From Thermoanaerobacteraceae bacterium (GTDB lineage: Bacteria > Bacillota > Thermoanaerobacteria > Thermoanaerobacterales > UBA4877), in NCBI GenBank assembly GCA_030016635.1, contig JASEJQ010000014.1, forward strand, positions 1-46,254: 46,254 nt of DNA. Reading direction: 5' to 3'. Within the stretch, counting starts at the first letter, position 1, and each line of letters starts with the position of its first letter. The notes under the pieces were generated by a model. The model saw only the letters and a list, made by a program, of their open reading frames with translations. It did not search any database and was not told the DNA's origin. This document shows positions 34 through 31,134 of this stretch, one piece after another. Both the position numbers and the translations under genes were made by a program.

Positions 34-101
34 CTAATATGATCACTTCAAAATAAAAGGTATTTATAACTCATGTGTAAGGAGTCTATATCAGCATACC
101 A

Positions 102-343
102 GCAACATCCATGCACCTGTGCACTCGTCTTGATACATCAAGGTCAAGGGACGCTCCTCTACTTCGATGATGGGCTTTGCCGTTGAGAAATGTCCCTATT
201 CCACTCGTTGTCTGCATTCCGCCGGGTACGCCTCCATGCGACATCCATGCCTATGGCTTAAACTCAGCAGGCGTCCTTGCCTGCTGCATTTGCCACTCAT
301 TAAGAGTATCATAGACTCTCTTTAAGGGTGCATTTGATGTTGC
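102..343. repeat. Structured intergenic repeat, copy A (242 bp)
   Basis: This is the first of three related elements in the window. Its ends are complementary: GCAACATC at 102-109 pairs with GATGTTGC at 336-343, and the next bases (ATGCACC with GGTGCAT) pair too, so the termini form an imperfect stem of about 15 bp. Outside it AGCAT (93-97) faces ATGCT (349-353). Inside are a hairpin CAGCAGGC/GCCTGCTG (265-272 with 279-286, loop GTCCTT), a stem AGGGAC/GTCCCT (147-152 with 192-197), and the invariant hairpin GAGT...ACTC (304-318). There is no plausible ORF. All flanking genes point left, so transcription would read the complement of the sequence as given. Its functional strand is unknown. Confidence 0.8.
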
Positions 344-398
344 ATGTCATGCTCTATTAGTTCATACATTGGAATTATTTCTTATTATGACACATGAT

Positions 399-869: not shown

Positions 870-898
870 GTTATATCAAAAAAGATTTTAGTGTACAA
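870..898 (-). promoter_or_regulatory. Candidate promoter for fabZ
   Basis: On the minus strand a TATAAC box preceded by TGA (an extended -10 form) lies 17 bp from TTGTAC. It sits between repeat copy B and the fabZ start. The -35 match is weak, so the call rests mainly on the extended -10. Confidence 0.35.
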
Positions 899-919
899 AG
901 CAGTATTCCACGAATGATA

Positions 920-1109
920 GCAACATCTATGCACCTGATCGTTCGTCTTGATACTCTAATAATTCGTGGTTGCATTTCGCCGGGTACGCCTCTATTCGGT
1001 GTCCTTGCCTCAAAGTCGGCTCATCCGGCGTCCATGCCGGATGCCCCGGCTACACTTGCCACTCATTAAGAGTATCATAGACTCGCTTTAAGGTTGCATT
1101 TGATGTTGC
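920..1109. repeat. Structured intergenic repeat, copy B (190 bp)
   Basis: This copy has the same end stem as copy A: GCAACATC at 920-927 pairs with GATGTTGC at 1102-1109. The pairing continues outward (AATGATA left, TATCATT right) with one bulge. The central hairpin is CATCCGGC/GCCGGATG (1022-1029 with 1036-1043, loop GTCCAT), and the GAGT...ACTC hairpin is identical to that in A. It lacks about 50 bp present in A and C, including the AGGGAC/GTCCCT stem, so that part behaves as an optional domain. It fills the gap between the FlgJ-type gene and fabZ. Confidence 0.8.
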
Positions 1110-1130
1110 ATATCATTCTTCAAAGGGTTT

Positions 1131-1469
1131 TTACAGTTTAATTAAAAAAGATTTATAGAGCATATCAGCCAGGCCAAATCCACCAGACTGGCTGATTTCC
1201 TTTGCATACTCATCATCCAGCATGGATGTGAAAATGTCTATGCCAATGGAATTGCCATATAGGCTATCCTTCGGCACAGTAGCTCTCATGTTTTTTAAAA
1301 CCATTGATACCAATATAGACTCAAAATCCTGGCAGGCTTTCTTTAAAAGTTCATCATCTTTTTTATCCACTGCTTCTTTAAGCATGGTCTCAAAACTTAC
1401 AGTCTTATCAGCGCTGCTCTTAACATTTGCGCTATCAATGACCAATAGACCATTTATCGGGTTTATCAA
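1131..1469 (-). CDS. FlgJ-type flagellar rod-binding protein
   Basis: This 112-residue protein matches the rod-binding domain found at the N-terminus of FlgJ, with the typical ACQDFESILVSMVLKNM segment and a C-terminal GGFGLADMLYKSF-like end. It lacks the muramidase domain of proteobacterial FlgJ, as is usual in Clostridia. It probably helps cap or assemble the flagellar rod as it passes through the wall. A TTG start is chosen because AGGTGG lies five bases upstream and there is no better ATG. The start follows the flgG stop by nine bases, so the two are probably translated from one message. Confidence 0.85.
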   Translation of the reverse strand: MINPINGLLVIDSANVKSSADKTVSFETMLKEAVDKKDDELLKKACQDFESILVSMVLKNMRATVPKDSLYGNSIGIDIFTSMLDDEYAKEISQSGGFGLADMLYKSFLIKL

Positions 1470-27872: not shown

Positions 27873-27897
27873 ATAAAATAAGGGGATTATCTCCCCT
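27873..27897 (-). terminator. Terminator-like hairpin after hutU
   Basis: On the minus strand AGGGGA pairs with TCCCCT around a five-base loop, beginning inside the hutU stop codon region, and is followed by TATTTTAT. The T-run is imperfect, so read-through into ftcD is likely. Confidence 0.5.
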
Positions 27898-29549
27898 CAT
27901 TTCCCAAGCATTGGTATATTTACGCCTCTCTCCTTAGCTGTCTTTATTGCTATATCATACCCTGCATCCACATGCCTCATTACACCTGTACCCGGGTCTG
28001 TGGTGAGTACGTGCTCCAGCCGCCAGGCCGCTTCATCTGTACCATCAGCACATACTACCATTCCAGCATGTATTGAGTACCCTATGCCTACACCGCCTCC
28101 ATGATGTACAGATACCCATGTAGCACCGGAAATCGCATTTATAAGGGCATTTAATACAGGCCAGTCTGCAATGGCATCGCTTCCATCCTTCATAGCCTCC
28201 GTCTCTCTGTATGGTGATGCCACAGATCCGGAGTCTAAATGGTCTCTACCTATGACTATAGGGGCCTTGAGCTCACCCTTTCTCACCATTTCGTTAATGG
28301 CCAGGCCGAACTTAGCCCTCTCTCCATAACCCAGCCAGCAGATCCTAGCCGGCAGTCCCTGGAAAGCCACCTTCTCTTCAGCCATCTTTATCCATCGAGC
28401 AAGGGACTTATCCTCGGGAAAGAGTTCCAGTACCTTCTGGTCTGTCTTATATATATCTTCCGGATCTCCAGAGAGTGCTACCCACCTGAATGGCCCCTTG
28501 CCCTCACAGAAGAGGTCTCTGATATATTCCGGAACATAGCCGGGTATATCAAAGGCATTGGTTACACCCTCATCATAGGCCATACGTCTGATGTTATTGC
28601 CATAGTCAAACACAATTGCACCGCGCTTTTGCATCTCAAGCATAGCCTTCACGTGTTCTGCCATGGCTTTTTTAGACCTTTTGACATATTCCTCAGGATC
28701 GGATTTTCTAAGCTCTAAGGCCTCCTCAAAGCTCATGCCATTGGGAACATAGCCATTTAACGGGTCATGAGCTGATGTCTGGTCTGTTACTATATCTGGT
28801 ATTAAACTGCGCCTTACAAGCTCTGGATGGACATCAGCTGCATTTCCTACAAGGCCGATAGAGAGCGGTCTCCCCTCCTCTTTTGCCTTCATCACCATGT
28901 TTATAGCCTCGTCCAGACTCTCTGTCATGGCATCCAGATACTTAGTCTTGAGCCTCTTCTCTATCCTTGACCTATCCACCTCTACTATCAGGACTACACC
29001 ATCATTCATGGTGACAGCCAGAGGTTGTGCACCACTCATACCGCCAAGACCGGCAGTAAGGGTGAATGTCCCTTTTAGTGTGCCATTAAAATGCTTTCTT
29101 GCACAGGCTGCAAATGTCTCATATGTTCCCTGAAGGATCCCCTGTGTACCTATATATATCCAGCTGCCCGCTGTCATCTGGCCGTACATGGTAAGGCCCT
29201 TTGCCTGCAGATCCCAGAAATTATCCCATGTGGCCCATGCAGGCACCAGCATAGCATTGGATATGAGAACCCTTGGCGCCCTGGCATGGGTCTTGAAGAC
29301 TGCTACTGGTTTACCTGACTGGACCAATAGTGTTTCGTCCTCATTCAGGTTTTCCAGGCTTTTTACTATCGCGTCAAAACACTCCCAGTTGCGGGCGGCC
29401 TGGCCAGCACCTCCGTAGACAATAAGGTGCTCCGGGTCCTCTGCCACCTCAGGATCCAGGTTGTTCATGAGCGTCCTGTATGGAGCTTCAATCTGCCAAT
29501 TTTTACAGTGCAGCTCATTCCCTCTCGGAGCCTTTATAACTCTTGCCAT
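27897..29549 (-). CDS. hutU: Urocanate hydratase (canonical copy)
   Basis: The 550-residue NAD-dependent enzyme converts urocanate to imidazolonepropionate. Family motifs are intact: [55 protein letters not shown], the catalytic Cys403 in GLPARICW (equivalent to Cys410 of the Pseudomonas enzyme), [10 protein letters not shown] and [11 protein letters not shown]. Its ATG has GGAGG eight bases upstream. The leader contains repeat copy C. It is one of two urocanase genes in this locus and the one whose motifs are standard. Confidence 0.96.
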
Positions 29550-29607
29550 GATATTACCTCCATAATTTTAAATATATTTACAGCAACAAATCGATATATT
29601 CATGTCA

Positions 29608-29859
29608 ATAACATCCCGGCACCTGATCGCTCATCTTGATACATCAAGGTCAAGGGACACTCCTCTACTTCGATGATGGGTTTCGCTGTTGAGAAATGTC
29701 CCTATTCCACTCGTTATCTGCATTACGCCGGTACGCCTCCATGCGGCATACATACCTACGGCTTAAGCTCATCCGGCGTCCTTGCCGGATGGAGCCGGCT
29801 ACATTTGCCACTTAACAAGAGTATCATAGACTCGCTTTAAGGATGCCTTTGGTTGTTAT
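29608..29859. repeat. Structured intergenic repeat, copy C (252 bp)
   Basis: The end stem is kept with changed bases: ATAACA at 29608-29613 pairs with TGTTAT at 29854-29859, where copies A and B have GCAACA and TGTTGC. GGCACC faces GG(A)TGCC, where A and B have TGCACC with GGTGCA (A) or GGTTGCA (B). The central hairpin is CATCCGGC/GCCGGATG (29770-29777 with 29784-29791), and AGGGAC/GTCCCT (29653-29658 with 29698-29703) and the GAGT...ACTC hairpin are present. It lies between the araC-type gene and hutU, in the predicted hutU leader, in the same orientation as A and B. Confidence 0.8.
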
Positions 29860-29909
29860 ATGCCATGCTAAGTAAGTTGCAGAAGAATAAACTCATTACT
29901 ATATATTCA

Positions 29910-29964: not shown

Positions 29965-31134
29965 TCAAAACTTACTGGGAGGTATCCCCACCACATTTTT
30001 AAACACCCTGGAAAAATAATTAGGGTCTTTGTAACCCACCATCTTCGCTATGGCGGATATTTTTAGGTTTTCCTGTTTTAAGAGTTTTTTGGCATTTTCA
30101 ATGCGAATTCTGGTTAAATAATCTATAAAATTAAGACCGGTGCATGCTTTGAAAACATGGCTGAAATAGTAAGGACTAAAACCAATATATGAGGAAATAT
30201 CTTCCAGAGTGATATCTTCAGAATAATTTTGACGGATATATTCGATTGCCTCATCAATCAATTTGAGGTTTTGCCTGTCTTTAATAGACCGCATGAGATC
30301 TATTACCTCTGTAATATATCTCTTGCTGGTTTCGCATAACTCTGTGGCAGTTTCGCTTTTCAAAAGGTCGTCAATGTAGCTGAGTGTAGTTGAGACCATT
30401 CTCTCCGGAGTTATACCATTCTCCACACCGATGCGCATAACGTACATGAAAAGCTCAATTGCTTTTACCTTCACCACAGTGGAATTGGTGCCGTGGCTGG
30501 CGGTAAATAAGATATCTATGACAGAACATGCGCCACTGACATCACCGCCTCTTACTTTAGCCGCAAGCTCTGATTCTATATCTGTTAAAAAAATCTCCTC
30601 ATCATTCCCGGAAGGGGTTATATCATCATAATGAATTATTTGATGGTTCCCTTTAAAGAACTTATAATTAAGTGCCCTTAAAGCCTCTTTGTAAGAAAGG
30701 TTTAAATTCCTGACATCCCTATAGGTACGGCCTATACCAACGCTCATAGGTATAACACATACCTCTTCTACCCAATCTTTTATTCCTCTGGCCATTTCAA
30801 TGCATTTATCCCTGGCATCCACTGCACCCGTATAATCAACTGTGACCAGGTGAGCTACAAGACTATCGCCCATAATGGCAGAAAGGTGATTTTTCTCACC
30901 GGGATAAGTATTAAGCGCCTTTAATATGCTGTTTCTCAAATCCTGTTTATACTTCTCGCTTCTATTGGCTGTAATCCACTCGTAGTTATCTACCTGGAAC
31001 GCAAAGACGCAATTGGGATACTCCTCAATACCTGCAAGGTTCATCATATTCCATATTTTCTTTATATCCGATGTGGTGCTGTATATGATATCATACACCA
31101 GTCCGGTTAAAATCAGCTCTTTAACACCATCCAT
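29965..31134 (-). CDS. AraC-family transcriptional regulator
   Basis: The 389-residue protein ends in a double helix-turn-helix AraC domain (about 285-389) with DITLEDISSYIGFSPYYFSH and KISAIAKMVGYKDPNYFSRV as the two recognition regions. The first 180 residues look like the degenerate GGDEF-like domain of CdaR/response-regulator-type AraC proteins, with SVGIGRTYRDVRNLNLSY, and a helical linker follows. There is no receiver domain or membrane segment. It starts four bases after the second urocanase stops and precedes hutU, so it probably controls one or both hut transcripts in response to an imidazole compound. That is inference from position. Confidence 0.85.
   Translation of the reverse strand: MDGVKELILTGLVYDIIYSTTSDIKKIWNMMNLAGIEEYPNCVFAFQVDNYEWITANRSEKYKQDLRNSILKALNTYPGEKNHLSAIMGDSLVAHLVTVDYTGAVDARDKCIEMARGIKDWVEEVCVIPMSVGIGRTYRDVRNLNLSYKEALRALNYKFFKGNHQIIHYDDITPSGNDEEIFLTDIESELAAKVRGGDVSGACSVIDILFTASHGTNSTVVKVKAIELFMYVMRIGVENGITPERMVSTTLSYIDDLLKSETATELCETSKRYITEVIDLMRSIKDRQNLKLIDEAIEYIRQNYSEDITLEDISSYIGFSPYYFSHVFKACTGLNFIDYLTRIRIENAKKLLKQENLKISAIAKMVGYKDPNYFSRVFKNVVGIPPSKF

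What the first reader, a model, noticed from the sequence alone, without database searches (positions are those of the whole stretch)
102..343. A dispersed intergenic element with covarying stems (copies A, B and C)
Three elements of 242, 190 and 252 bp share end complementarity and internal hairpins while their bases differ. At the ends, A and B have GCAACA/TGTTGC and C has ATAACA/TGTTAT, a double compensatory change. Next to it TGCA pairing in A and B becomes GGCA/TGCC in C. The central hairpin is CAGCAGGC/GCCTGCTG in A and CATCCGGC/GCCGGATG in B and C, two more compensated pairs, always with a GTCCNT loop. The GAGT-ATCATAG-ACTC hairpin is invariant. Pairing kept through substitution is the classic sign of selected structure. 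I do not recognise a known RNA or IS family. It could be a structured RNA, or a non-autonomous mobile element of the IS200/605 or retron kind.
Basis: partly seen in the sequence, partly recalled or inferred. Interest (0 to 1): 0.8.

Follow-up and report, generated by a model that had tools for sequence, protein, structure and literature searches.

The report
Mobile DNA carrying CsrA-like RNA hairpins
The three repeats are copies of a small transposon-like element, present about 50 times in this bacterium, that carries a known but unexplained RNA structure (TwoAYGGAY) with two hairpin loops fitting the binding code of the global regulator CsrA; this suggests that the RNA family spreads as mobile DNA and may act as a scattered CsrA decoy.

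Summary
Copy B matches Rfam RF01731 (TwoAYGGAY, function unknown). The host genome holds about 50 copies in two length classes; A and C are the longer class. Covariation is strong (34 of 68 pairs with double changes, 0/500 shuffles). The elements are MITEs: terminal inverted repeats GATTNNAGTGTAAGAAG, 6-7 bp target duplications, and an empty site for copy B in a relative. In Thermoanaerobacter the same core sits in a second MITE type. Its ends match a 1566-bp IS1182-family insertion sequence, and it inserts at intrinsic terminators, duplicating the whole hairpin (22/26 copies; control 0/95; empty sites at 90-100% identity). The host-type ends match a second, 1940-bp IS1182-like insertion sequence. 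What is conserved across both vehicles is a two-hairpin head with CANGGANG loops, the Csr/Rsm consensus, GGAs 24-27 nt apart, on one strand only. RF01731-positive genomes nearly always have csrA (47/49 against 245/350). Best reading: an IS1182-mobilised MITE transcribed as UTR that binds a CsrA dimer. Mobility is shown; CsrA binding is inferred. Not IS200/605 and not a retron.

The parts
884..1142 (-). Copy B, full element between terminal inverted repeats GATTTTAGTGTACAAAG (884-) and rc ATTAAACTGTAAAAAC (-1142)
   Evidence: TIR matches at 885-900 and 1127-1142; alignment with about 40 full-length copies; orthologous site empty in a relative
878..883 (.). Left copy of the target duplication of B (AAAAAA)
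   Evidence: sequence
1143..1148 (.). Right copy of the target duplication of B (AAAAAA)
   Evidence: sequence
936..1091 (-). RF01731 TwoAYGGAY RNA core of copy B
   Evidence: cmscan 47.6 bits, E 9.3e-5 for the window
1029..1036 (-). Head hairpin 1 loop of B, CATGGACG on the RNA strand (CsrA consensus CANGGANG)
   Evidence: sequence; GGA kept in 39/40 copies
1000..1007 (-). Head hairpin 2 loop of B, CAAGGACA on the RNA strand (one mismatch at the closing base)
   Evidence: sequence; GGA kept in 37/40 copies
68..376 (-). Copy A, long-type element (approximate ends AACTCATGTGTAAGGAG / rc AATTCCAATGTATGAAC)
   Evidence: BLAST and nhmmer family, alignment
272..279 (-). Head hairpin 1 loop of A (CAAGGACG)
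   Evidence: sequence
242..249 (-). Head hairpin 2 loop of A (CATGGATG)
   Evidence: sequence
29582..29890 (-). Copy C, long-type element (ends approximate and degenerate)
   Evidence: 84% identity to A, nhmmer alignment 29588-29878
29777..29784 (-). Head hairpin 1 loop of C (CAAGGACG); the hairpin 2 loop of C has lost its GGA
   Evidence: sequence

Best explanation
The repeats are MITEs, short non-autonomous DNA transposons moved in trans by IS1182-family (DDE_Tnp_1_6) transposases. Their cargo is the TwoAYGGAY RNA: a long rod closed by two adjacent hairpins whose hexaloops read CANGGANG, the high-affinity Csr/Rsm consensus. They insert in intergenic DNA near gene ends. In Thermoanaerobacter they insert exactly at intrinsic terminators and duplicate the whole hairpin; the upstream copy is then cut off from its U-tract while the downstream copy keeps it, so the element should be transcribed as part of the 3' UTR without loss of termination (inferred). 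The transcribed head would bind one CsrA dimer across its two loops (GGAs 24-27 nt apart), making each copy a CsrA site in the mRNA that carries it and the family a distributed CsrA sink. Shown: repetitiveness, TIRs, target duplications, empty sites, matching IS ends, covariation, one-strand loop conservation, csrA co-occurrence. Inferred: trans-mobilisation by these transposases, transcription, CsrA binding, any effect on the host.
For: Rfam match; 29 RF01731 matches and about 50 copies in the genome. TIRs and target duplications; empty orthologous sites for B and two other copies in G001. Thermoanaerobacter: nearly all TIR-selected loci carry the core; direct duplication of the terminator in 22/26 copies against 0/95 mismatched flanks; empty sites with one terminator copy at 90-100% identity. 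IS1182 insertion sequence (NF033551, 496 bits) with ends CAGACTGTTGACAAA/CAGTTTGTTGACAAAG and the same terminator duplication in 11/13 copies; second IS1182-like insertion sequence with ends TGATTCTAGTGTA and 6-bp duplications, as in the host genome. Covariation. Two CANGGANG in 23/26 TIR-selected copies, none on the other strand; spacing 24-26 nt. csrA in host and in 47/49 RF01731-positive genomes against 245/350 others. Two CANGGANG-like hexaloops about 18-21 nt apart are a known high-affinity arrangement (PMC4894983); the CsrA idea for TwoAYGGAY was proposed from motif matching in PMC4333381.
Against: No PF13751 transposase was found in the host genome itself, so the mobiliser there is lost, unassembled or different. 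The group-2 transposase is below NCBIfam's IS1182 cut-off (164 against 270). No expression or binding data. Strand-specific G-U excess is clear only in the head hairpins (36:11), absent in outer stems (45:48), and copies are not independent; a motif-anchored count is weaker (21:9 and 5:2). Orientation relative to neighbouring genes is biased in the host (27 sense against 12 antisense, p 0.024) but not across the phylum sample (8 against 9). csrA co-occurrence is not corrected for phylogeny; two positive genomes (both family f71) lack a csrA hit.
Confidence: 0.6

Rival explanations
1. It is purely selfish DNA: an IS1182-type MITE whose hairpins are read as DNA (or by the transposase), with no RNA function. 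Covariation arises because the transposase or cruciform extrusion needs paired arms.
For: Mobility, TIRs and target duplications are shown; outer stems show no strand asymmetry (45 G-U against 48 A-C).
Against: The two GGA loops are kept on one strand only, with constant spacing, in two vehicles with different TIRs and in other families of the phylum; the matching autonomous IS1182 elements show no such head at their ends; head hairpins favour G-U over A-C; csrA co-occurrence.
Confidence: 0.25
2. It is a domesticated CsrB-like small RNA (trans-acting sponge) that merely happens to be repeated.
For: Single-copy loci with shared flanking sequence in several Thermoanaerobacterium genomes suggest vertical retention; two CsrA-type loops.
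Against: Dozens of copies with transposon ends and duplicated target sites elsewhere; only two loops per copy, unlike the many sites of CsrB-type RNAs; no own promoter or terminator was demonstrated.
Confidence: 0.1
3. IS200/605-type (Y1 HUH) element or retron product.
For: Hairpins with conserved loops.
Against: Long TIRs and target duplications are not made by Y1 transposition (established knowledge); ends match IS1182-family DDE elements; neighbours of the window copies are FabZ, rod-binding protein, FlgF/G, urocanase and an AraC-type regulator, not a reverse transcriptase.
Confidence: 0.02

Closest known systems
Rfam RF01731 TwoAYGGAY RNA (PMC2864571)
   Same: Same fold and two A-Y-G-G-A-Y hexaloops; copy B and 19 other copies in the genome pass the curated threshold
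   Different: Described as a candidate RNA of unknown function; here it is shown to be the core of mobile elements with transposon ends. A and C carry an extra arm and fall below threshold
IS1182-family insertion sequences (NF033551), incl. IS1272 and its stem-loop targeting (PMC5678879)
   Same: Ends and target choice of the Thermoanaerobacter MITE equal those of a full IS1182 element; structure-directed insertion; the duplication of a whole stem-loop was drawn as pathway b in that paper
   Different: The MITE has no transposase; IS1272 replaces the stem-loop, here it is duplicated; host-genome copies use a second IS1182-like end and 6-7 bp duplications
CsrA-titrating RNAs (CsrB/RsmZ, flaA leader; PMC4894983)
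   Same: CANGGANG-type hexaloops spaced for one CsrA dimer; conserved, covarying hairpins
   Different: Dispersed mobile copies in intergenic DNA and 3' UTRs instead of one dedicated sRNA or leader; binding not tested
Other bacterial MITEs (BOX, RUP, SPRITE, Correia; review PMC10969869)
   Same: Short, repeated, intergenic, TIR-bounded, structured
   Different: That review holds no mention of CsrA or IS1182; the cargo here is a conserved two-hairpin head with a global-regulator consensus

Membership tests
RF01731 TwoAYGGAY | Covariance-model score at or above the gathering threshold | tested here: met
   Copy B 47.6 bits against 43; 20 genome copies over the cut-off; A and C not reported
RF01731 TwoAYGGAY | Two AYGGAY terminal loops on adjacent hairpins | tested here: met
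   GGA 39/40 and 37/40 in host copies; copy C has lost one
MITE | Short, multi-copy, no transposase, terminal inverted repeats | tested here: met
   About 260 or 310-340 bp, about 50 copies, shared TIR
MITE | Target-site duplication and empty sites | tested here: met
IS1182-mobilised element | Ends and target duplication shared with an autonomous IS1182 element | tested here: met
   Thermoanaerobacter MITE; for host copies the partner is IS1182-like but below the NCBIfam cut-off
IS1182-mobilised element | Transposition in trans by that transposase | not testable with these tools
   Needs a transposition assay; no transposase of this family found in the host genome
CsrA-binding RNA | CANGGANG hexaloops, two, spaced for a dimer, in a csrA-positive host | tested here: met
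   consensus in PMC4894983
CsrA-binding RNA | Physical binding to CsrA | not testable with these tools
   No binding data available
IS200/605 (Y1 HUH) | No terminal inverted repeats and no target duplication | tested here: not met
   Both present
Retron | msr-msd next to a reverse transcriptase gene | tested here: not met
   Neighbours of window copies are other genes; not searched genome-wide
IS256-derived MITE | IS256 (PF00872) transposase with matching ends | tested here: not met
   No PF00872 hit in the genome; ends match IS1182-like elements instead

The most novel reading that the evidence does not exclude
A transposon family spreads ready-made CsrA-dimer binding sites through genomes: IS1182 transposases deposit a MITE at terminators, the duplicated terminator keeps termination intact while the element enters the 3' UTR, and the accumulated copies act as a genome-encoded, copy-number-set CsrA sponge that links gene 3' ends to the Csr network.
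Probability: 0.4. Interest if true: 0.88.

Novelty: new variant of a known kind. Interest (0 to 1): 0.72.

Why it matters
TwoAYGGAY has been an RNA family of unknown function since 2010. Showing that it is the conserved core of IS1182-type MITEs explains its scattered distribution and makes the CsrA hypothesis directly testable in Thermoanaerobacter strains. It would be a case of a mobile element carrying binding sites for a global RNA-binding regulator, and a clear natural example of a transposon that targets a stem-loop and duplicates the entire stem-loop. It also warns that covariation in a repeated intergenic element can mark mobile DNA as well as an RNA gene.

Tried and rejected
IS256 as mobiliser (from TIR resemblance and apparent 8-9 bp duplications): no PF00872 in the genome; my first reading of the duplications as 8-9 bp was revised to 6-7 bp once the IS1182-like ends were known. 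IS1202 (long duplications) was considered from PMC10132070 and dropped when IS1182 elements with identical ends and targets were found. The pattern search GAGTNATCATAGNACTC was mis-specified (no hits) and redone. Nothing in viral contigs with the head pattern. The host organism's name could not be obtained, since its own records are left out of the named collection. Single-sequence folding of the head gave an alternative hairpin 2; the Rfam pairing was used instead.

Full report
WHAT IS THERE. The window is contig C20 of a 2.35-Mb genome in 114 contigs. The three repeats exist as described. Copy B matches Rfam RF01731, TwoAYGGAY, on the minus strand at 936-1091 (47.6 bits, cut-off 43). The genome holds 29 RF01731 matches, 20 over the cut-off. 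A BLAST search with copy A gave 56 matching pieces; profile searches over the fetched loci give about 50 substantial copies in two length classes. A and C belong to the longer class, which has an extra arm of about 80 bases and scores below the Rfam threshold.

STRUCTURE. In 28 copies, 91.2% of cells of a 68-pair structure pair; 34 pairs have changes on both sides (0/500 shuffles reach this), and sliding the partners destroys the pairing. The shape is a long rod made by the two arms of the element, closed by two adjacent hairpins (the head). The loops on the RNA strand are GGA in 39/40 and 37/40 copies. In 26 Thermoanaerobacter copies chosen by their ends only, 23 have exactly two CANGGANG motifs on one strand and none on the other; GGA spacing is 24-26 nt. 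In the host the commonest spacings are 25-26 nt, with no motif on the opposite strand in 49 of 50 copies.

MOBILITY. Copies share ends GATTNNAGTGTAAGAAG in inverted orientation. Counted outside GATT/AATC, clear duplications are ATGTAAT, ATGAAAT, ATTTTT, AAAAATT and AAAAAT; B has AAAAAA. The relative G001 (same family) has the orthologous fabZ/rod-protein junction without copy B (73% identity through the junction) and two more empty sites; it also shares some occupied sites.

THE SECOND VEHICLE. Genomes of genus g5 are Thermoanaerobacter: G016 has the length of T. wiegelii Rt8.B1 (2,785,056 bp, NC_015958.1), which the named scan returned. The five searched carry 15 to about 97 ends per genome of the form CAGNNTGTNGACAAACTTT, bounding elements of about 265 bp (some 331) with the same core. 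They sit at intrinsic terminators, and the whole terminator palindrome (about 19-30 bp) is present on both sides: 22/26 against 0/95 for mismatched flanks. For three sites the joined flanks with one terminator copy match other species without the element at 90-100%: for example G016 reads AAAAAGGCACATAAAGTGCCTACACAAAC where G012 has the element between two copies of GGCACATAAAGTGCCT.

THE MOBILISER. The same genomes carry a 1566-bp insertion sequence whose transposase is IS1182 family (NF033551, 496 bits, cut-off 270), with ends CAGACTGTTGACAAA / CAGTTTGTTGACAAAG and the same terminator duplication in 11 of 13 copies. A second, 1940-bp insertion sequence with a related transposase (PF13751 above cut-off, NF033551 below) has ends TGATTCTAGTGTA and 6-bp A....T duplications, the pattern of the window elements. 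So one RNA core rides in two MITE types that correspond to two IS1182-like lineages. Other families of the phylum show the same: L200 has CAGACTGTAGACAAA ends and a duplicated terminator, L208 similar ends, L198 a host-type end. No PF13751 gene was found in the host genome. IS1182 targeting of stem-loops, and stem-loop duplication as a possible outcome, are discussed in PMC5678879; an IS1182-linked rearrangement in T. kivui is in PMC12056078.

FUNCTION. CANGGANG hexaloops are the high-affinity CsrA/RsmE target, and 18 nt is the stated optimal spacing for one dimer (PMC4894983). PMC4333381 proposed CsrA binding for TwoAYGGAY from motif matching. New here: loop conservation in copies selected without the RNA model, on one strand, in two vehicles; csrA present in the host and in 47 of 49 RF01731-positive genomes against 245 of 350 others (Fisher p 1.7e-5, not phylogeny-corrected). 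The head hairpins favour G-U over A-C on the RNA strand (36:11), the outer stems do not (45:48); this fits RNA-level selection on the head and DNA-level pairing in the rod, but copies are not independent and a motif-anchored recount is weaker. The RNA strand of all three window copies is the coding strand of the flanking genes; host-wide, sense exceeds antisense 27 to 12 between co-directional genes, but a phylum sample shows no bias. CsrA binding is therefore likely but unproven.

CONTEXT IN THE WINDOW. A and B flank fabZ (399-848). B lies between fabZ and a flagellar rod-binding protein gene (1131-1469), which is followed upstream by FlgF/G-like genes. C lies between urocanase (27897-29549) and an AraC-type regulator (29965-31134).

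VERDICT. A known Rfam family, newly explained as the cargo of IS1182-type MITEs. Mobility is firmly shown; the link to particular IS1182 transposases is strong by ends and targets; CsrA capture is the best explanation of the conserved head and is testable.

Noticed in passing
window 1127-1142 and 1131-1469: The stop codon of the flagellar rod-binding protein gene lies inside the terminal repeat of copy B, so the insertion set that protein's C-terminus.
   Followed up: partly
L227 (G014), from about 1727 on: At the terminator that carries the MITE in G012 (downstream of prs), another Thermoanaerobacter genome has what looks like a group II intron with a reverse transcriptase ORF: terminators serve as shared insertion sites for unrelated elements.
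   Followed up: partly
L002, L024, L026, just after ...CTTTAA: Three host copies carry the same extra segment of about 85 bases (CCGTCCATGCTTATTTTAAGCACAACC...) at the same position, after which the arm resumes; a third structural variant or a nested element.
   Followed up: no
L063, L065, L066, L071, L077: Thermoanaerobacterium genomes have a single copy at what looks like one shared locus, with other ends (GACAATTTTGA...TCAAAATTGTC): possibly a domesticated copy.
   Followed up: partly
L062 and L079 (G039): Two RF01731 copies lie in tandem about 290 bp apart.
   Followed up: no
G000 contigs C11, C26, C27, C40, C41, C43, C48 (first about 100 bases) and window start: Many contigs of the host assembly begin inside or next to an element end, so the assembly is broken at these repeats and copy number is a lower bound.
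   Followed up: no
G198 and G390 (family f71): The only two RF01731-positive genomes without a csrA hit belong to one family and are 92-94% complete; they would be a natural test of loop decay without CsrA.
   Followed up: no
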